From: Alphaproteobacteria bacterium
GTDB taxonomy: Bacteria > Pseudomonadota > Alphaproteobacteria > Micavibrionales > UBA2020
DNA: 64,000 bases
Assembly (NCBI GenBank): GCA_025934695.1
Contig: JAICWS010000002.1
Location: 834,230-898,229 of the forward strand
Direction: 5' to 3'
A program made the position numbers and the translations under genes. The notes below the pieces were generated by a model that made no database searches, was not told the origin of the DNA, and saw only the letters and a program-made list of their open reading frames with translations. This document shows positions 45,558 to 53,855 of the stretch, piece by piece (position 1 is the first letter of the stretch; the number at the start of each line of letters is the position of its first letter).

Positions 45558-45577
45558 TTTTTACTTTTGCGCTTTCA

Positions 45578-45612
45578 ACAAAAATGCCTCCGCTGGTCGG
45601 AGGCATTTTTGT
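45578..45612 (+). terminator. Terminator of dksA
   Basis: A 15-bp stem including ATGCCTCCG/CGGAGGCAT with a 5-base loop and a T-run built into its 3' arm. Confidence 0.9.
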
Positions 45613-45649
45613 TTTGAAGCAGGGGGTGCTGTAGGCGCAGCATGTAACA

Positions 45650-45736
45650 ATTGTCATTCCGAGCGCAGCGAGGAATCTTTTCAAGCGCGGAAATCGGATG
45701 ATTGGGAAGATTCCTCGCTGCGCTCGGAATGACAAT
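45650..45736. repeat. Intergenic inverted repeat, family 2 copy B
   Basis: Two perfect 30-base inverted arms (45650-45679 and 45707-45736; core CCGAGCGCAGCGAGGAATC) flank a 27-base centre. The perfection of the arms suggests recent origin or conversion. Confidence 0.88.
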
Positions 45737-46132
45737 GAGGAGAGAAAGCCGACTCGAAACGACTCGATGGACGTGCAGCGCGACAGACGAGATCCCCATC
45801 CTAAAAGAATACTTCCCATAACAAAAATTATTACGAAAAACTCACGCGAGGATTTTCCCCCATACCGCTCCGAACGTTCATTTTAGTCACGTTTTTATGG
45901 CATTTCTGACGTTTCCGGAAAAATGATTTTCCAGTACATTATGTGCTGCGCCGCAAAAATTTTTGAAACAATTCATGCGAATTTGGCAGGGGATCGTGCC
46001 CGAAGTTGCATTTTTAGTATTTGTCCCTTTTACAAAAAATGCTAACTTCGACCTCGATCAAAAACGCCCTCTATCAGGTCGATTCCGAACGCCGTTCTTC
46101 CGGCAAAGGTGGCGCGTTGATGAAAAACGATG
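45737..46132. other. Gene-free region upstream of the VWA/AAA operon
   Basis: No convincing coding sequence is visible. The stretch is AT-rich after 45820. A weak TTGTCC/TAACTT pair lies near 46021-46048. A 26-codon frame starting near 46120 overlaps the VWA start out of frame, and I do not regard it as a gene. Confidence 0.5.
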
Positions 46133-46147
46133 TTAACGAACTTTTAA
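46133..46147. promoter_or_regulatory. Perfect CtrA box before the VWA/AAA operon
   Basis: TTAA-CGAACTT-TTAA matches the CtrA consensus at all 8 positions, and a further TTAA lies at 46151-46154. It ends 22 bases before the start at 46169, a position from which CtrA could repress or, with a nearby promoter, activate. Confidence 0.65.
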
Positions 46148-46168
46148 CTGTTAAAGGCGACGTTATAT

Positions 46169-49100
46169 ATGGCCGACCCGAAAGACAGACGGAAGATTGA
46201 GAATATCCTGCGCGAGCCGCTGACGCGCCACCGTCTGTTCCTGAATGCCAAACTGCGCGCCGCACAGAATCCCGAAAATCCGCAGCCCTTCACGGTCGAC
46301 AACCTGCGCGACTTTATGGCGGCGCTGCCGAACAATTCGGAAGAATACAAAAAAGAAACGCTCAACGTCCTCGAGGCCGTCACCACCGGCAAGGCTCCGC
46401 AGGAACCGAAATTCGACAGCCCCGAAAAGCAGCTGATCTGGGGCGCCGCGATCGCGTTCCTCACGCTCAACCCGGACCAGATGAAAACCTGGGCCAAGCC
46501 GCCCGCCGAAGGCGTGCCGCTGCAGGGCACCGAGCTGTGGCAGCAGGTGACGACGACGGAATTCGCCTATCAGGAACTGCTCAGCCACGCGCACTACATC
46601 CGCGAAGCCCTGCGCGACAAGGACATGAAATACGCCTGGGGCCAGCCGGGTTCGAACTTTACCTATGACCGCACGAAGAAGGTCATCAACATCGACTTCA
46701 TGCAGTCGCTGATCGTGGGCTTCGAGCACGCGCGCGCCGACGTGAACCGCGAGATCGGTCACTCGATGCTCTCGGTCTCCTACCCCAAGCGCATGCGCGA
46801 AGTTTACAAGGAGATGCAGCCGCTGATGAAGCGCGCGCGCCTTGCGCAGGAGAAGAAGGGCCCGCAGCTCAAGCCTGATGAGTACAAGAAACTGCGCATG
46901 CTCTCGGCCGAATGGCAGCTGCGCCACATGATGTTCTCCGCGGCGGAAGAAAACGTCGCGAACAAGTTCGTTTCCAACCTCGGCCAGCAGGTGCTGCAGG
47001 ACTTCGGCGTTTCGCTGAACAACACGGCCGTGACCTTCCGCGGCGTGGGCCTCATGCGCCTGCCCGAAGACGGCATGCAGGACGAGCTGCGCCGCTACAT
47101 GAACCTCTGCAATGCGGTTCAGCTGAGCTTCTTCGCGAACAACGAATTGTTCGAAGACACCGACAAGGGCTGGGACAAGGTCGGCATCGATCCGAACCTG
47201 ATCCGCAAGACCTCGACGCTCAGCAGCCGCCCCGAAGGGCAGAAGGACGATACGGACGGCATCAGCCATCCCGACTTCCAGTACCTGCGCGAACTCTGCG
47301 GCGGCCCGAAAGGCCTCGAGAACCTCCAGCCCAAGCAGCACGAGCGCCTGTTCGGCTGGGCCAACCTCGCCAACCGCGTGCAGCGCGCCGATGAAGACCG
47401 CAAGGCGATCATCGAGGAGATCTGGAAGCTTTATGCCGAAGACCTCATTCAAAAGGTCCTCCAGCAGACCAATGATCAGGTCGATCAGCAGCTGAAAGAC
47501 GCCCAGCAAAAGCAACAGCAGCAGGGCCAGGACGGCGAAGACCAGGATGGCCAAGAAGGCGATGACGGCCAGGACCAGGACGGTCAGGAAGGCCAGGGTC
47601 AAGGTCAGGGCAAAGGCAAGGGTAAAGGAAAAGGCAAGGGCAAGCCGCAACGGGGCAAACCCCAGGGCGATCCTTCCGATGGCGATGATTCCGACGGCGA
47701 AGAATCCGACGGCCAGGATCAGGACGGCCAGCAGGGTCAAAAAGGCGACAAGCAGAAAAAAGACAAAGGCAAAAAGCAAAAAGGCGACAAGGGCGATAAA
47801 GGCGACAAGGGAGACGAGCAGGGCGAAGACCAGGACGGCCAGGGCGGCGACGAACAGGACGCCGATGCCGACAAGGACGGCCAGGGTCAGGGCAAAGGCA
47901 AGGAAGGCGATCTCGGCGCGGATGAGGAAGAAACCGTTCCCGTCGAAGGCGCCGGCGACATGCCCGCACCCAACAACGCCAATGAAGTCCCCGCTGACGA
48001 AGTCGACCCGAACGGCAATGGCCAGGACGGCGAAGACGCCGATGGCGAAGATGCCGACGGCCAGGACGCGGACGGCGACGATGCGGACGGCGATGGCGAC
48101 GACGGCATGACCGCCGACGAGCTCGAAAAAGAGCTCGAGAAGCAAAAACAAAAAGGCCAGGATGGCGAGGGCGACGACGCCGACGGCCAGGACGGCGACG
48201 GCGATGCCGACGGCCAGAAGAAGGGCAAGAACGGCAAGCAGAAGGGCAAATCCTCCAAGCAGGCGGGTCATGGCGACGGCCGTTCGCTGGAAGAGCTCTC
48301 CAAGCTCGACTGGACCGAGTACGGCAAGCGCGTGGCGGAGCTCGCCGGTCCCATCAGCCGCGTGCGCAAATTATTCAAGGACGTGCAGGAGCGCCAGCTC
48401 CAGCGCAAGCGCGCCATGTCCCAGACGCTCGACATCCTCCCCGAAAACGGCGAGGTAAAGGACCGTTTCAACCAGGAAGCGCACAAGAACCTGACCATCA
48501 AGAAGCTCACCAACCAGGTGGAAGAGGGCGATCTCAAGCGCTTCCACAAGGACGAGGTGAAGATGGTGCCGACCGAGATCGACATCGTCATCATGATCGA
48601 CGGCTCGGGCTCCATGAACGGCACGCCGCTCAACTCGGCCCTTCAGTCTGCGGCCATCATGTTCGAAGCCGCCTCCGGCAAGGACATGAAGATGAACGTT
48701 TACGTGGGCATGTGGGGCGACAGCGATCCGCCGATGCTCATCACCCCGGGCGCGGACCGCGTCGAGATCGGCAAGGCGATGGCCAAAGCGCAGAAGGGCC
48801 TCAATTCGGGCACCGACCTCGCCCCCGCGATCAAGAAAGTCGCGCAGACGATCGGCGAGCAACGCGGCAGGAGCGGGACCTTAAGCGGGTTCACGCACGT
48901 CCTTATCCTTTCCGACGGCGACATGTTCGACAACGGCGTCGCGAAAGACAAGATCTACACCATGTTCGAATACTGCGACAAGGTGACGGTGGATGTCGCC
49001 ATCATCGGCCGCAAGGGCACGAGCATGGAACAGATGGCCAAGAGCATCAAGGGGCACAAGAGCTTCCAGGACGTTGGGGTTACGGTTGGAAGCGACCCGA

Positions 49101-49234
49101 ACCAGGTGCCGATGGACATTGTCGGGCTCTTGCTCGAAAAGGTGCGGAAATGCGGTTCGTTCACCGCCGTTCCGAACAGTCAGAAACGCAGAGCCATGCA
49201 AAAAGCTCATAACAAAATGGATAGGAAGCCATGA
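46169..49234 (+). CDS. Giant VWA-domain partner of a MoxR-like ATPase
   Basis: A 1021-residue protein in three parts. Residues 1-440 form a helical domain that includes ADVNREIGHSMLS (about 191-202), like the HExxH of VWA-linked zincin domains but with Arg for the first His, so probably catalytically dead. Residues about 445-705 are an extreme D/G/Q/K-rich low-complexity linker. Residues about 720-1021 contain a VWA domain with a complete MIDAS: DGSGS at 811-815, Thr882 and the ILSDGDMFD loop. The plan resembles CobT, but the N-terminus and ATPase partner differ. Its stop overlaps the ATPase start by 4 bases. AAAGG lies 11 bases upstream of the ATG. Confidence 0.88.
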   Translation: MADPKDRRKIENILREPLTRHRLFLNAKLRAAQNPENPQPFTVDNLRDFMAALPNNSEEYKKETLNVLEAVTTGKAPQEPKFDSPEKQLIWGAAIAFLTLNPDQMKTWAKPPAEGVPLQGTELWQQVTTTEFAYQELLSHAHYIREALRDKDMKYAWGQPGSNFTYDRTKKVINIDFMQSLIVGFEHARADVNREIGHSMLSVSYPKRMREVYKEMQPLMKRARLAQEKKGPQLKPDEYKKLRMLSAEWQLRHMMFSAAEENVANKFVSNLGQQVLQDFGVSLNNTAVTFRGVGLMRLPEDGMQDELRRYMNLCNAVQLSFFANNELFEDTDKGWDKVGIDPNLIRKTSTLSSRPEGQKDDTDGISHPDFQYLRELCGGPKGLENLQPKQHERLFGWANLANRVQRADEDRKAIIEEIWKLYAEDLIQKVLQQTNDQVDQQLKDAQQKQQQQGQDGEDQDGQEGDDGQDQDGQEGQGQGQGKGKGKGKGKGKPQRGKPQGDPSDGDDSDGEESDGQDQDGQQGQKGDKQKKDKGKKQKGDKGDKGDKGDEQGEDQDGQGGDEQDADADKDGQGQGKGKEGDLGADEEETVPVEGAGDMPAPNNANEVPADEVDPNGNGQDGEDADGEDADGQDADGDDADGDGDDGMTADELEKELEKQKQKGQDGEGDDADGQDGDGDADGQKKGKNGKQKGKSSKQAGHGDGRSLEELSKLDWTEYGKRVAELAGPISRVRKLFKDVQERQLQRKRAMSQTLDILPENGEVKDRFNQEAHKNLTIKKLTNQVEEGDLKRFHKDEVKMVPTEIDIVIMIDGSGSMNGTPLNSALQSAAIMFEAASGKDMKMNVYVGMWGDSDPPMLITPGADRVEIGKAMAKAQKGLNSGTDLAPAIKKVAQTIGEQRGRSGTLSGFTHVLILSDGDMFDNGVAKDKIYTMFEYCDKVTVDVAIIGRKGTSMEQMAKSIKGHKSFQDVGVTVGSDPNQVPMDIVGLLLEKVRKCGSFTAVPNSQKRRAMQKAHNKMDRKP
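47512..48260 (+). repeat. Degenerate tandem repeats encoding the acidic linker
   Basis: Short repeats built on GGCCAGGACGGC and GACGGCGAC variants encode runs such as GQDGEDQDGQEG, KGKGKGKGKGK and DADGEDADGQDADG. The pattern implies slippage-prone, length-variable DNA within the VWA gene. Confidence 0.85.
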
Positions 49235-51888
49235 CCAAAGAAAAACCCTCGCTGCTGAAGACGAAACTGAAGGACCTGACGCCCGACGAGCTCCAGTCGC
49301 TGGAAAAGCCCCTCGGCACGTCCGACCGCCCGTTCCCGATGTGGGGTTCGCAGCGCGTCGAGCAGAACGGCCGCTCCGATCTCGAGCAGGTTCTCTCGGT
49401 CATCGCCGACGACACCTATCCGATGAAGGTTTTCTCCGAGCGCCCCTATAAAGAGGTGATCGCGCTTGCCTATGGCGACATGCCGACGCCCTCGATGCTG
49501 CCGCTCTTCTTCGACGGCCTCGAGCGCCGCAAGCCGGATTCGACCAACCGCACCCAGATGATGATCGGCGACCCCGGCGCGGGTAAGTCGTTCCTGGGCG
49601 CCCTGCAGGGCCGCCTGCGCACGAAAGAGCCGATCGAGGTCCTGGACTGCGGCGGCAAGAACATGCGCGAACTGCTGTTCGAGATGGTTCTCGACTTCGG
49701 CGCGGGCGAAGCGCTGCCACGCGCAATCGACAAGCGCCTCGCGGCCGGCACGCTCGAGCCCCTCTCGCTCGGCCTGCTCAAGCAGCTGCCCGACACCGCC
49801 GTGACGAAAGACACCGACGGCAATCTCCAGGGCATCGACTGGAACGCGCTGAAGTCGGCCGGCAACGACAAGGTCGAAGCCGCTTTCGAAACGCTGAAGA
49901 AGGTTTCGAAGATCGAAGGCCTCGACAATGCCGGCGGCAACGCGCTCGGCATGAACTCGCAATACGGCCCGCTGATCCAGAAGTTCATCAAGGGCGAAGA
50001 AATCGTCCTCGACGAATACAACAAGTCGCGCGAAGGCACGGACGACAACCTGCAGACGGTCTGGCAGTTCTGCATCGGCGAATTGAAAGAGTGCACGGTC
50101 GAAAACCCGCTGAAGAACAAGGACGCGACCTCGGGCCCCTCGACCTTCACCTTCCGCCGCGAAGACACGAAGCCCGGCTTCTTCGTCACCCTCACGGGTA
50201 ACAAAAAAGAAGACGGCGTCACGACCCGCTCGCTCAACAAGTCGGTTTATTCGCGTCTTTCTCCCCAAACGCTCCCCGATCCCGACGTGATCGACTGGCA
50301 GCACCGCATCTGCCAGATGATCGTGGGCATCCCCGTTTCCACGCTCTACACGACCTTCAAGGACCAGGCCGACAAGGATCCCGATGCGTTCGGCGACTGG
50401 CTGCTGTGGCTGCGCCGCACGAAAGCCGAGTCCGAAGGCGGCAAGGTGCCGGAACTGCAGGAAACGCTGCTCACCAACTGGAAGAACGTCGTCAATTCGT
50501 CCGAAAAACTCGCCCGCTTCTACGACAAGTGGTCGAAGATGACGAACTCGGAAGCGATCACCTCCAACGGCAACGCCGACCTGGTGGAAGAAGTCGACGA
50601 CGAATACTCGAAAAAAGAAGGCATCGACTTCCGCAAGATCAAGCAGCACCTCGAAGAGGCGATTCCAATCCGCCCGCGCATGCAGAAGGAAGACGCGCCG
50701 CGCTTCCTCGACACCAAGGCGTGGGACAAGGCGCCGAAACTGGGCGAAGCGATCCCCGAGAACCCCTCGCTCAACTTGGGCACGCGCCTCACCGAGTTCC
50801 TCGAGCGCATGGTCTACGAAAAGTCCGGCGCCGTCGGCAAGCACAAGCTCTACGACAAGCTGACGAAGTCGATGCAGGAATTCGCCCTGCGCGACATCAC
50901 TCTGCAGGAAGCCGCGCGCTCCAAGCAGCGCTCGGTCGAGGAAGACCTGAACATCTCGGCCTTCAACGACCGCGACCTGAACAAGCAGGCCAACATGGCC
51001 CGCAAGGTGTTCTGTGAGTGGCTCCGCCAGGAAAATCCGGAGATCAAGGCAACCGACGACGAGATCGCGACGCCCCGCACCTTCCGCACCGCGATCGAAC
51101 AGGTCGCCGCCGCGAAGGATTCGGCCGCGAAGAACGAGTTGTTCGTCGCCAACCGCGATCCCGAGACGCTCTATGCCGGCCAGCCGCTGATGTCCGCGAT
51201 CATCAAGGACGCGGCGGTCTATGTCGCGCAGTCGAAAGAGATCGATTTCACGCTGCAGGACCTCGTCCACCACGACGATTTCCTCGCGTCTCTCGCGCTG
51301 CCGACCGTTTCGGCCAAGAACCTGTCCTCGGTCTGGGAGCAGAACATCCGCCCCCTGACGCGCAGCGAACCCGCCAACGACAGGGGCGCGGCCGCTTCCG
51401 CGCCTGCTTCGGGCGGCTCGATCCTCGACCACGACGAGGCGCTGTACATCGCCGAGAACAAGTCGGACAAGAAGATCGCGACCACCAGCCTGCAGGTGCT
51501 GTGGTCCGACGAACAGGGCGAGCGCCCGGTTTCCGTGCACATCGTGCGGAACGAAGCGCGCGGCAAGACCCTGGTCGTGTCGGAGCACGCGCCCTCCAAG
51601 CTCTTGTCGGCCTTCAAGGAAGCCGGCGTTACGCACGTCGACCGTCACGACCCGAACGCCCAGACGAAGGTCGAGGCGGCCCTGGCGGACATCACGCGCG
51701 GCATGCCCGGCTCCGTCAAGGACCGCCTGGTCGATGCGTTCAAGTACCGCAATGACGTGGATCTGCCCCATCTCAAGGGCAAGAACCCCGGCCTCGCGGA
51801 CCTGCTCGTCGACGAGAAGATCGACATGATGTACGCCAAGTACCTCGTGAAGAACGATAAGAAAAAAGCCGCCGGCGGCCCCGGTTAA
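49231..51888 (+). CDS. MoxR-like AAA+ ATPase with large novel C-terminus
   Basis: An 885-residue protein. The AAA+ core has Walker A GDPGAGKS (113-120), Walker B EIVLDEYNKS (257-266), a sensor-1 Asn in TLTGNKKEDG (about 324) and Arg residues at RSLNKSVYSRLSP (about 333-345), the MoxR layout. MoxR rings remodel or activate targets delivered by a VWA partner, here encoded immediately upstream with a 4-base overlap. An insertion of about 100 residues lies between Walker A and B. The C-terminal about 500 residues are unlike short MoxR/CobS/RavA proteins; I see helices but no recognised domain. Confidence 0.88.
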   Translation: MTKEKPSLLKTKLKDLTPDELQSLEKPLGTSDRPFPMWGSQRVEQNGRSDLEQVLSVIADDTYPMKVFSERPYKEVIALAYGDMPTPSMLPLFFDGLERRKPDSTNRTQMMIGDPGAGKSFLGALQGRLRTKEPIEVLDCGGKNMRELLFEMVLDFGAGEALPRAIDKRLAAGTLEPLSLGLLKQLPDTAVTKDTDGNLQGIDWNALKSAGNDKVEAAFETLKKVSKIEGLDNAGGNALGMNSQYGPLIQKFIKGEEIVLDEYNKSREGTDDNLQTVWQFCIGELKECTVENPLKNKDATSGPSTFTFRREDTKPGFFVTLTGNKKEDGVTTRSLNKSVYSRLSPQTLPDPDVIDWQHRICQMIVGIPVSTLYTTFKDQADKDPDAFGDWLLWLRRTKAESEGGKVPELQETLLTNWKNVVNSSEKLARFYDKWSKMTNSEAITSNGNADLVEEVDDEYSKKEGIDFRKIKQHLEEAIPIRPRMQKEDAPRFLDTKAWDKAPKLGEAIPENPSLNLGTRLTEFLERMVYEKSGAVGKHKLYDKLTKSMQEFALRDITLQEAARSKQRSVEEDLNISAFNDRDLNKQANMARKVFCEWLRQENPEIKATDDEIATPRTFRTAIEQVAAAKDSAAKNELFVANRDPETLYAGQPLMSAIIKDAAVYVAQSKEIDFTLQDLVHHDDFLASLALPTVSAKNLSSVWEQNIRPLTRSEPANDRGAAASAPASGGSILDHDEALYIAENKSDKKIATTSLQVLWSDEQGERPVSVHIVRNEARGKTLVVSEHAPSKLLSAFKEAGVTHVDRHDPNAQTKVEAALADITRGMPGSVKDRLVDAFKYRNDVDLPHLKGKNPGLADLLVDEKIDMMYAKYLVKNDKKKAAGGPG

Positions 51889-51906
51889 GCTTTTTAGGGC
51901 AAGGTC

Positions 51907-52251
51907 ATGAGCAACACCGGCAAGAAGGCATCGCACCTGATGTCGACAGACACGCTGGAAGAAGTCGGCGCAGCCGTTGCGCAGCAGAAAGCCATGGAGC
52001 GGGGACCCAAGTTCCTGCCCCACGGCTGCCGGCTCTTCGAAGTGGCGTCGGGCTGGGAAAGCAACATGATCCGCCGCGACAAGGGCGTTGCGAGCGCGTC
52101 CACAATGCTCGAGCTCGAGGACGCGATCCGCAGCCCGGATGTCAAAATCGTGTTCATTCCGCTGGACGCCATGGTGACCGCCCCGGATATCGAGAAAATC
52201 TGCCAACGGAACGGCGTCGCGAAGACGCTTTTTAAAGAGGTGAGAGAATGA
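51907..52251 (+). CDS. Small unrecognised protein of the VWA/AAA operon
   Basis: A 114-residue protein that I do not recognise. Predicted alpha/beta: SASTMLELEDAIRSPDVKIV followed by FIPLDAMVTAPDIEKICQRN. There is no signal peptide and a single mid-protein Cys (PHGCRLFE). It starts 18 bases after the ATPase and its stop overlaps the next start by 4 bases, so it belongs to the complex or regulates it. A substrate or adaptor role is inferred. Confidence 0.78.
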   Translation: MSNTGKKASHLMSTDTLEEVGAAVAQQKAMERGPKFLPHGCRLFEVASGWESNMIRRDKGVASASTMLELEDAIRSPDVKIVFIPLDAMVTAPDIEKICQRNGVAKTLFKEVRE

Positions 52252-53774
52252 GCGGGGAACGGTATATCAAGCAGGCGCTCATCGCGTCGATGGTCGACCA
52301 TCCCGATCAGGAAAAATACCGCACGCGCGCCTTTTCCGGCGAGAACCTGGAAAAAGTCGTGGAAGTCCTGGCCGAGCAGAAGAACAAGCTGACCAAGGCC
52401 GACTTCCTCGCGCCCGACGACGAGGGCCGCTATATTATCGACACCCCCGGCTTCTGGAAGAACTTTTCCAAGATCCTCGATATCGTGACCAAGGCGGGCG
52501 ACAAGTTCACCTTCGATGATTTCACCAAATCAGTGGCGCGCGACGACGCCCGCGAGCCGCGCGACCTGCTCGATTCCGCGCGCGCCAACGGCGGTCTGGC
52601 TAAAATCTTCGCGGCCGACGTCTGGACCGGACGCTATGACGAGATGGAGCGCCTCTGGTACCGCGTGCCGGTGCCCTCGCGCCGCGACCTGTTCAAGAAC
52701 GACGGCTTGCTCGATCCGTCCCTCAAGCGCACGCTGCTCGCCGCCGAAGGCAAGCAGATGCCCGAAGACGGCCTTTCCGCCGCGGGCGTGACGACGGGCG
52801 ATCTGTTCGCCGCCTTCCGCGAGCGCGGCAATTACGAAGAGCTCAACCGCAAGCTCGCGCAGAACAACGATTACCTGCGCAAAGACTATCTGCTGCTGCC
52901 CGACAGTTCGGGCGACACGGTGTTCTATTATCAGGGCGCCTGGGATAAGTTCGCCGACATCACGAAAAATCTCGCCGCGCACGGCGAACGTTTCGAAGTG
53001 GCGGATTACCTGCGCCAGGTCGGCCGCCAGCCGAACATCCTGACGCGCGCCGCCGAGCGCAAGACGCTCGACAAGGTCTTCGCCGCCGACAACTGGGTCG
53101 ACCGCCTGCCTGAAATGCTCGAACTCTGGGGCCAGGTGCGCGAGGGCTGGAAAACCTCGACCATGACTGCGCGCGACTTCGACAATTCTTACGCCGAGGC
53201 CGAAAGCAAGACCTACGGCAAGCTCGTCGACTTCACGGCTATCCATGGCAAGCAGGACCTGTTCACGCCGCTGAATGCGACCCAGTCCGCGGGAGCGCCG
53301 GTGCTGCCGCTCGGCCTGAAATCCTTCTGGGATAATTATGCCGAGGCGGACAAGCGCCTTTCCGAAACGGGCGGCAAACTGTCCATCACCGACCTGCGCC
53401 AGAACAGCGGCTTCCTCGGCTCGACCGTGCTGATGAGCGCGGTGAAATTCGGCCAGTTCGAAAAAGTCGTCGATATTTCGCGCAAATCGGGCGAGCCCGT
53501 GACGCTCGACGATTTCCTGTCGAAAGATCGCCACGGGAACACGCTTTTGAACATTCTTGCCGACCGCAATCAACTGTCTCTCGCATTCTCGCCCGACCTC
53601 TGGGCGGGCCGCGTCGGCGACATGAAAACGCTCTGGACCCACGTGCGCATCAACGACCGCGCGCAGGTCGACTTCCCGCAGGCCGAAGTGGCCGCCAAGC
53701 AGGCGACGCTGAAGATGCAGGCGAAGGATAAATTCAAGCTCAAGCCCAACCGCCAGACTCCCGGCGCCGGCTAA
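52248..53774 (+). CDS. Protein with three FxxDxWxxR...LW repeats, VWA/AAA operon
   Basis: A 508-residue protein that I do not recognise. Three internal repeats end in the same block: IFAADVWTGRYDEMERLWYR (120-139), VFAADNWVDRLPEMLELWGQ (277-296) and AFSPDLWAGRVGDMKTLWTH (446-465). Each is preceded by FW/W-DKF and a DDF/ADY/LDDFL turn, giving a helical solenoid distantly like ankyrin repeats (DRHGNTLLNILADRN). It is cytoplasmic, without signal peptide. It is the last gene of the operon, followed by a terminator. It may be the scaffold or target-recognition subunit (inference). Confidence 0.8.
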   Translation: MSGERYIKQALIASMVDHPDQEKYRTRAFSGENLEKVVEVLAEQKNKLTKADFLAPDDEGRYIIDTPGFWKNFSKILDIVTKAGDKFTFDDFTKSVARDDAREPRDLLDSARANGGLAKIFAADVWTGRYDEMERLWYRVPVPSRRDLFKNDGLLDPSLKRTLLAAEGKQMPEDGLSAAGVTTGDLFAAFRERGNYEELNRKLAQNNDYLRKDYLLLPDSSGDTVFYYQGAWDKFADITKNLAAHGERFEVADYLRQVGRQPNILTRAAERKTLDKVFAADNWVDRLPEMLELWGQVREGWKTSTMTARDFDNSYAEAESKTYGKLVDFTAIHGKQDLFTPLNATQSAGAPVLPLGLKSFWDNYAEADKRLSETGGKLSITDLRQNSGFLGSTVLMSAVKFGQFEKVVDISRKSGEPVTLDDFLSKDRHGNTLLNILADRNQLSLAFSPDLWAGRVGDMKTLWTHVRINDRAQVDFPQAEVAAKQATLKMQAKDKFKLKPNRQTPGAG

Positions 53775-53820: not shown

Positions 53821-53855
53821 AAAACCGGAGCCGCAAGGTTCCGGTTTTTCTTTTT
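53821..53855 (+). terminator. Terminator of the VWA/AAA operon
   Basis: A 9-bp stem AAAACCGGA/TCCGGTTTT around a 10-base loop, then TCTTTTT, 47 bases after the last stop. Confidence 0.85.

What the first reader, a model, noticed from the sequence alone, without database searches (positions are those of the whole stretch)
46169..53774. Four-gene MoxR/VWA operon with an unusually large ATPase and unrecognised partners
The sequence shows a 1021-residue VWA protein and an 885-residue MoxR-like AAA+ ATPase overlapping by 4 bases, then a 114-residue and a 508-residue protein also overlapping by 4 bases, ending in a clear terminator. Known MoxR/VWA pairs (CobS/CobT, RavA/ViaA, CbbQ/CbbO) use ATPases of roughly 300-500 residues and lack these two extra proteins. 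The about 500-residue ATPase extension and the partners suggest an undescribed protein-remodelling machine. Its target is unknown.
Basis: partly seen in the sequence, partly recalled or inferred. Interest (0 to 1): 0.85.

Follow-up and report, generated by a model that had tools for sequence, protein, structure and literature searches.

The report
MoxR ATPase machine with ankyrin partner
Four neighbouring genes in a Micavibrio-like bacterium encode a conserved, undescribed protein-remodelling machine: an oversized MoxR motor, a partner whose built-in protease domain has lost a key residue, a small helper and an ankyrin-repeat protein that may choose the target.

Summary
All four are under purifying selection. 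The operon is conserved in the order Micavibrionales: the ATPase family occurs in 30 of 114 related genomes. The fourth gene occurs in 26 of those 30 and in none of the other 84; the third in 28 of 30 and one other. The same four genes, in order, appear in two genomes outside the order. The ATPase is a MoxR AAA+ protein: its predicted core matches NorQ and CbbQ over their full length (Z about 17). The VWA protein has a CobT-like layout: an N-terminal domain with a zincin-like signature (HExxH...E in many relatives, REIGH in the window copy), an acidic Gly/Asp/Gln linker, and a VWA domain with an intact metal site. The 508-residue protein is a divergent ankyrin solenoid. Closest described layout: the metallopeptidase-vWA plus MoxR pair of jumbo phages. 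It is not cobaltochelatase: no CobN, and a separate CobST exists in the genome. Most likely it is a housekeeping chaperone machine with solenoid target receptors. The client is unknown. New variant of a known kind.

The parts
46169..49234 (+). Gene 1: VWA co-chaperone, 1021 aa, zincin-like N-domain + acidic linker + VWA
   Evidence: Pfam VWA_2 8.8e-8; alignments; N-domain model
46169..47479 (+). Gene 1 N-domain (residues 1-437), zincin-like helical domain
   Evidence: AlphaFold pLDDT 91; weak but recurrent gluzincin matches; phage CobT-like/VWFA proteins lead the viral matches
46748..46762 (+). REIGH (residues 194-198): position of HExxH; first His replaced by Arg in this lineage
   Evidence: motif table over 28 homologues; intact HELGH in L100 and L101
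46946..46948 (+). Glu260, invariant, candidate third zinc ligand
   Evidence: invariant column in A2 and A5
47480..48283 (+). Flexible acidic linker (residues 438-705; 23% Gly, 22% Asp, 15% Gln; net charge -44)
   Evidence: composition
48581..49057 (+). VWA domain (residues 805-963) with intact DxSxS...T...D metal site
   Evidence: Pfam; invariant D811 S813 S815 D916
49231..51888 (+). Gene 2: 885-aa MoxR AAA+ ATPase
   Evidence: VIA Z 17.2 to NorQ, rmsd 3.1 over 252 of 256 residues; Pfam AAA_5 in 7 of 32 homologues, best 1.5e-6
49567..49590 (+). Walker A GDPGAGKS (residues 113-120)
   Evidence: G113, G118, K119 invariant
49696..49947 (+). About 85-residue insertion (residues 156-239) between the two strands that sit where the MoxR helix-2 hairpin lies
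   Evidence: secondary structure of model; alignment; placement inferred
49999..50016 (+). Walker B IVLDE (residues 257-262)
   Evidence: D261, E262 invariant
50200..50256 (+). Sensor 1 N324 to arginine-finger candidate R342
   Evidence: both invariant
50977..51885 (+). C-terminal extension of ATPase (residues 583-885): helical part plus alpha/beta domain
   Evidence: model; its last part also occurs as a separate protein in L071 and L072
51907..52251 (+). Gene 3: 114-aa small protein, no known family
   Evidence: no match in four libraries; co-occurs with ATPase
52248..53774 (+). Gene 4: 508-aa divergent ankyrin-repeat solenoid
   Evidence: profile hits in PDB are ankyrin proteins, best E 4.3e-4; Ank_2 in 5 of 20 homologues; ankyrin-type paralogues in own genome
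53821..53848 (+). Intrinsic terminator, 12 bp stem, 4-base loop

Best explanation
The operon encodes a cytoplasmic MoxR/VWA remodelling machine of a new subtype. Gene 2 forms the AAA+ ring (fold shown by prediction; hexamer inferred from family). Gene 1 is its VWA co-chaperone. The VWA domain docks on the ring, and the long acidic linker transmits force to the N-terminal domain (inferred from NorQ-NorD). That domain is zincin-like. It looks catalytic in sister copies, but in the window copy the first zinc-binding His is replaced by Arg, so it most likely binds a protein, or a protein-bound metal site, instead of cutting. Gene 4 is an ankyrin solenoid that recognises the client, and gene 3 is a small adaptor that couples it to the motor (both inferred). 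ATP hydrolysis pulls or twists the bound client to mature or disassemble one specific complex. A fixed chromosomal address and purifying selection suggest housekeeping rather than defence. Paralogous copies without gene 4, or with a different repeat protein in its place, would serve other clients.
For: MoxR fold: NorQ Z 17.2, CbbQ2 Z 16.6, all ten best rows are MoxR proteins of VWA-paired systems; invariant Walker A, Walker B, sensor 1 and R342. VWA metal site intact. Zincin-like N-domain: HExxH with an invariant downstream Glu in many homologues, gluzincins recurrent among fold matches, and phage CobT-like proteins among the top viral matches although only the N-domain was queried. Ankyrin. 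Co-occurrence: gene 4 in 26 of 30 ATPase-positive and 0 of 84 negative genomes, gene 3 in 28 of 30 and 1 of 84. Genes 1 and 2 both fall into the same three supported paralogue groups in their trees. Fixed neighbourhood dksA - operon - IMPase - zapA - 5-FCL - ymdB across two families. dN/dS 0.13-0.29. No transmembrane segment in any of the four. NorQ-NorD mechanism: PMC13036017.
Against: No biochemical or expression data. The zincin fold matches are weak (best Z 5.8, none significant in Foldseek), and profile comparison of the N-domain with phage CobT failed. Four genomes of one genus keep genes 1-3 without gene 4, and one group of paralogues lacks it throughout, so the ankyrin protein is not indispensable. 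Gene 3 occurs alone in two genomes. Whether the four proteins form one complex is untested.
Confidence: 0.5

Rival explanations
1. It is a cobalamin-related chelatase: a divergent CobS/CobT pair that drives metal insertion into a corrinoid or another tetrapyrrole.
For: CobT-like layout (domain, acidic linker, VWA). VWA aligns with phage CobT in profile comparison, E 9e-9. A CobD/CbiB-family membrane protein lies directly upstream in six family genomes.
Against: No CobN in any of 17 family genomes. A canonical CobS-CobT pair exists elsewhere in the genome. Gene 1 does not reach the CobT_C cut-off (12.1 of 21 bits) and has no CobT hit. The upstream protein misses all CbiB cut-offs of NCBIfam and is absent from the window genome.
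Confidence: 0.08
2. It is a defence or conflict system like the MoxR-vWA ternary systems described by Kaur et al. 2020: the machine releases an effector on infection.
For: MoxR plus vWA plus extra conserved protein in a strict order, with two or more paralogous systems per genome, are features of those systems (PMC7159879). A repeat protein stands where others carry sensors.
Against: No effector domain found, no PADLOC match, fixed chromosomal neighbourhood in two families, purifying selection on all genes, no copies in phage or plasmid records or in viral contigs. No VMAP, iSTAND, FtsH or beta-propeller component was recognised.
Confidence: 0.17
3. It is an ATP-dependent regulatory protease: the N-domain of gene 1 is an active or conditionally active metallopeptidase fed by the MoxR ring, and the ankyrin protein picks substrates.
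For: HExxH and downstream Glu intact in sister copies, in basal copies and outside the order. The jumbo-phage relatives are proposed to process structural proteins (PMC7824862). One operon outside the order (L100) is followed by a DUF6782 metallopeptidase gene.
Against: In the window copy the first zinc His is Arg; in several relatives both His are gone (REIGR, REIGY, REIGK), while the gene stays under purifying selection. So this copy is unlikely to cut.
Confidence: 0.2

Closest known systems
Jumbo-phage MoxR AAA+ with metallopeptidase-vWA co-chaperone (Iyer et al. 2021, PMC7824862) and phage CobS/CobT pairs
   Same: Neighbouring MoxR and VWA genes; VWA protein with an N-terminal zincin domain and an acidic linker; degenerate active sites also occur (L116 has SEIAK where others have HExxH); some phage CobS are long (617 aa in L115).
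   Different: Bacterial chromosome at a fixed locus; ATPase of 885 aa with its own C-terminal domains; two extra conserved partners. No direct sequence match to phages; N-domain homology not shown by profile.
NorQ/NorD and CbbQ/CbbO
   Same: AAA+ core of gene 2 superimposes on the whole of NorQ and CbbQ; VWA partner next door.
   Different: NorQ is about 270 aa. Gene 1's N-domain, linker and the two partners have no counterpart recognised here.
Cobaltochelatase CobS/CobT (CobN)
   Same: Overall layout of the VWA subunit.
   Different: No CobN in the family genomes; canonical CobST present separately; CobT models not matched.
MoxR-vWA ternary conflict systems (VMAP, iSTAND, FtsH, beta-propeller; Kaur et al. 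2020)
   Same: MoxR plus vWA plus further conserved components in a strict order, multiple paralogous systems.
   Different: Third and fourth components are a small unknown protein and an ankyrin solenoid; no effector fused to the vWA protein; syntenic and slowly evolving.
RavA/ViaA
   Same: MoxR plus VWA two-gene core.
   Different: Known from literature only (PMC10585395, PMC6987120 seen as abstracts); no membership test run here.

Membership tests
MoxR clade of AAA+ ATPases | AAA+ core with Walker A, Walker B, sensor 1 and arginine finger | tested here: met
   Invariant G113, G118, K119, D261, E262, N324, R342 over 32 homologues
MoxR clade of AAA+ ATPases | Fold closest to MoxR members | tested here: met
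   Ten best VIA rows are NorQ or CbbQ, Z 15.0-17.2; dynein next at 14.3
MoxR clade of AAA+ ATPases | Insert in helix 2 | tested here: inconclusive
   Model has strands at 150-155 and 240-245 flanking an 85-residue insertion at the expected place; strand pairing could not be inspected
MoxR clade of AAA+ ATPases | VWA partner encoded next to it | tested here: met
   Gene 1, adjacent in nearly all loci whose contig reaches it
Cobaltochelatase CobNST | Match to CobT (PF06213) and CobT_C (PF11775) over cut-off | tested here: not met
   CobT_C 12.1 bits, cut-off 21; no PF06213 hit; true CobT of the same family scores 352 and 246 bits
Cobaltochelatase CobNST | CobN large subunit in the genome | tested here: not met
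   0 of 17 family genomes, controls ring in 5
Gluzincin metallopeptidases | HExxH plus downstream Glu | tested here: not met
   Window copy REIGH, E260 kept; met in type B copies, L049, L050, L066, L067, L100, L101
Gluzincin metallopeptidases | Zincin fold | tested here: inconclusive
   Neprilysin Z 5.8, IRAP 4.9, selecase 4.6, BlaR1 4.5 among mixed helical matches
Ankyrin-repeat proteins (gene 4) | Ankyrin repeat profile | tested here: met
   Profile search of PDB sequences returns ankyrin and DARPin chains at two places in the protein, best 4.3e-4; single sequence below Pfam cut-off
MoxR-vWA ternary conflict systems | VMAP, iSTAND, FtsH or beta-propeller component | tested here: inconclusive
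   No such family among Pfam, NCBIfam or PADLOC matches of the four proteins; presence of each model in the libraries was not verified
Jumbo-phage metallopeptidase-vWA plus MoxR pair | vWA protein with N-terminal metallopeptidase domain beside a MoxR gene | tested here: inconclusive
   Layout and motif agree; structural matches to phage CobT-like proteins prob 0.96 but E 0.07; profile comparison of N-domains fails
RavA/ViaA | RavA C-terminal LARA domain and ViaA N-domain | not tested
   No RavA or ViaA sequences compared

The most novel reading that the evidence does not exclude
A general-purpose MoxR/VWA chassis with exchangeable solenoid receptors (ankyrin, leucine-rich or none): an ancestral ATP-driven metallopeptidase turned repeatedly into a pseudo-protease chaperone, with the repeat protein deciding which complex is remodelled. 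This would be the first MoxR/VWA class with dedicated, swappable client receptors.
Probability: 0.3. Interest if true: 0.75.

Novelty: new variant of a known kind. Interest (0 to 1): 0.55.

Why it matters
How MoxR/VWA machines choose their clients is poorly understood. This set offers natural variants with one motor design, different repeat proteins, and active or dead zincin-like sites, often in the same genome. That makes client choice and the role of the N-domain testable by swapping parts between paralogues. It also gives a conserved, chromosomally fixed, uncharacterised function to a bacterial family with almost no experimental work, and links bacterial MoxR/VWA systems to the phage CobST-like pairs.

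Tried and rejected
Single-sequence searches of Pfam, NCBIfam, PHROGs and PADLOC gave only the VWA domain; hits such as RepA_C, FHIPEP, DDT and Erm are below cut-off and were discarded. No relatives in phage or plasmid records and none in viral contigs (a degenerate-pattern search, so distant ones could be missed). Phylum-wide sample: no match besides the own genome. A leucine-rich reading of gene 3, formed by eye, found no support and was dropped. Leucine-rich proteins beside type C paralogues are supported by Pfam only for L067 (LRR_6 1.6e-8); L055 and L064 look similar by eye but match nothing. Relation of gene 3 to the ATPase C-terminus was tested and not found. Profile comparison of the N-domain with phage CobT failed, and ATPase versus phage CobS was weak (E 0.001, probability 21, though the Walker B and sensor 1 regions align). 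Foldseek alone on the N-domain found nothing significant. Terminator-like sites as a whole are not above chance (10 against 14 expected); the one at 53821 is the longest of them and sits at the operon end. No structure was predicted for genes 3 and 4 or for complexes, as the two jobs went to gene 2 and the gene 1 N-domain.
Full report
Observation. Four + strand genes lie at 46169-49234, 49231-51888, 51907-52251 and 52248-53774, with ATGA overlaps between genes 1/2 and 3/4 and a terminator at 53821-53848. The opposite strand carries long ORFs too, so coding was checked: against two relatives dN/dS is 0.13-0.29 in all four genes.

Host. The genome has 4.13 Mb in seven contigs. Its nearest named relatives are alphaproteobacterial MAGs including 'Micavibrio sp. 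UBA2020', so the window belongs to the order GTDB calls Micavibrionales; the GTDB family name UBA2020 is inferred from that record.

Spread and co-occurrence. The ATPase family occurs in 30 of 114 related genomes, in 3 of about 287 other sampled alphaproteobacterial genomes and in none of a phylum-wide sample apart from the own genome. Gene 4 (full-length profile, E <= 1e-20) occurs in 26 genomes, all ATPase-positive; gene 3 in 29, of which 28 are ATPase-positive. Fisher tests give 8e-22 and 4e-23; related genomes are not independent, so these overstate the case. Gene order VWA-ATPase-small-ankyrin is kept in 15 related loci that show all four. It is also kept in two genomes outside the order, L100 and L096, where all four profiles match in order.

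Paralogue groups. Trees of gene 1 (without linker) and gene 2 give the same three groups. Type A is the window operon. Type B has genes 1-3 only. Type C has genes 1 and 2, gene 3 in L055 and L064, and another repeat protein downstream: in L067 a leucine-rich protein by Pfam (LRR_6 1.6e-8), in L055 an ankyrin protein two genes on. The own genome has one copy of each type.

Chromosomal setting. Type A sits between dksA and IMPase-zapA-5-FCL-ymdB in family f1, and between dksA and zapA in f5. This is a fixed address, unlike a mobile defence island. In six family genomes a CobD/CbiB-family membrane protein lies between dksA and gene 1; the window genome lacks it. It does not reach any CbiB equivalog cut-off, so its role is open.

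Gene 2. Seven of 32 homologues match AAA_5, best 1.5e-6. The AlphaFold model (mean pLDDT 83) superimposes on the whole of NorQ (Z 17.2, rmsd 3.1, 252 of 256 residues) and CbbQ2 (Z 16.6); the ten best entries are MoxR proteins of VWA-paired systems. Walker A, Walker B, sensor 1 N324 and R342 are invariant. The extra length is an N-terminal beta part (about 75 residues), an insertion of about 85 residues between strands 150-155 and 240-245, and a C-terminal helical plus alpha/beta region from about 583. The last part also exists as a separate protein in L071 and L072.

Gene 1. The VWA domain is significant in Pfam and its metal site is complete. A 268-residue linker rich in Gly, Asp and Gln carries a net charge of -44. 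The N-domain (pLDDT 91) holds HExxH and, 60-70 residues on, an invariant Glu in type B copies, in L049 and L050, in L066 and L067, and in L100 and L101 outside the order. In the window it is REIGH, and in relatives REIGR, REIGY or REIGK. Intact motifs in several deep branches suggest that the catalytic site was ancestral and was lost more than once (inference). Fold comparison gives weak matches in which gluzincins recur: neprilysin, IRAP, selecase, BlaR1. In the viral library, named phage CobT-like or VWFA proteins are among the few matches with probability above 0.5, though only the N-domain was the query. Phage CobT proteins carry DHEVAH-type motifs and adjacent CobS, and Iyer et al. (PMC7824862) describe such metallopeptidase-vWA plus MoxR pairs. 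Profile comparison shows the VWA link (E 9e-9) but not the N-domain link.

Gene 4. A profile of 20 orthologues against PDB sequences returns ankyrin and DARPin chains at residues about 209-250 and 348-433, best E 4.3e-4. Ank_2 is seen in 5 of 20 members. Own-genome relatives share the C-terminal module and look like ankyrin proteins by eye. Gene 3 matches nothing; W50 is its only invariant residue.

Interpretation. Known steps: MoxR fold, VWA site, co-inheritance, fixed locus, purifying selection. Inferred steps: ring formation, docking of VWA on the ring, force through the linker as reported for NorQ-NorD (PMC13036017), client binding by the pseudo-zincin domain and the ankyrin protein, and an adaptor role for gene 3. 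Cobaltochelatase is excluded as a membership claim: no CobN in 17 of 17 family genomes, and a separate canonical CobST. A conflict-system role is possible but less likely given location and selection. The client is unknown.

Novelty. The layout differs from every MoxR/VWA system found in the papers searched by its partners and the size of its ATPase, and it resembles the phage metallopeptidase-vWA pairs in gene 1. The literature search covers open-licence papers only. I rate it a new variant of a known kind.

Noticed in passing
L042:4468-5439, L047:3641-4666; absent at window 45560-46168: A CobD/CbiB-family (AmpE-like) membrane protein lies directly upstream of the VWA gene in six family genomes but is missing from the window genome.
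   Followed up: partly
G000:C6:151540-154265 (L006): Canonical CobS-CobT pair preceded by a DnaJ-like gene, without CobN in any of 17 family genomes: an orphan CobST of unknown role.
   Followed up: partly
G000:C6:227863-230517 (L054) and G000:C7:23773-26373 (L055): Two further paralogous MoxR/VWA/small-protein sets in the own genome.
   Followed up: yes
L122:8129-8578 and L123:7011-7424: Gene 3-like small proteins without a MoxR/VWA neighbour.
   Followed up: partly
L071:7203-8024 and L072:3495-4364: Free-standing proteins of about 280 aa related to the C-terminal domain of the ATPase.
   Followed up: no
L100:12880-14031: A DUF6782 metallopeptidase gene (HELTH motif) follows the four-gene operon in a genome outside the order.
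   Followed up: no
window 45650-45736: 35-nt near-perfect palindrome between dksA and the operon, likely a dispersed repeat element.
   Followed up: no
G000:C2:97523-102428, 165485 and 301000-302038: A family of ankyrin-like proteins sharing the C-terminal module of gene 4 elsewhere in the genome.
   Followed up: partly
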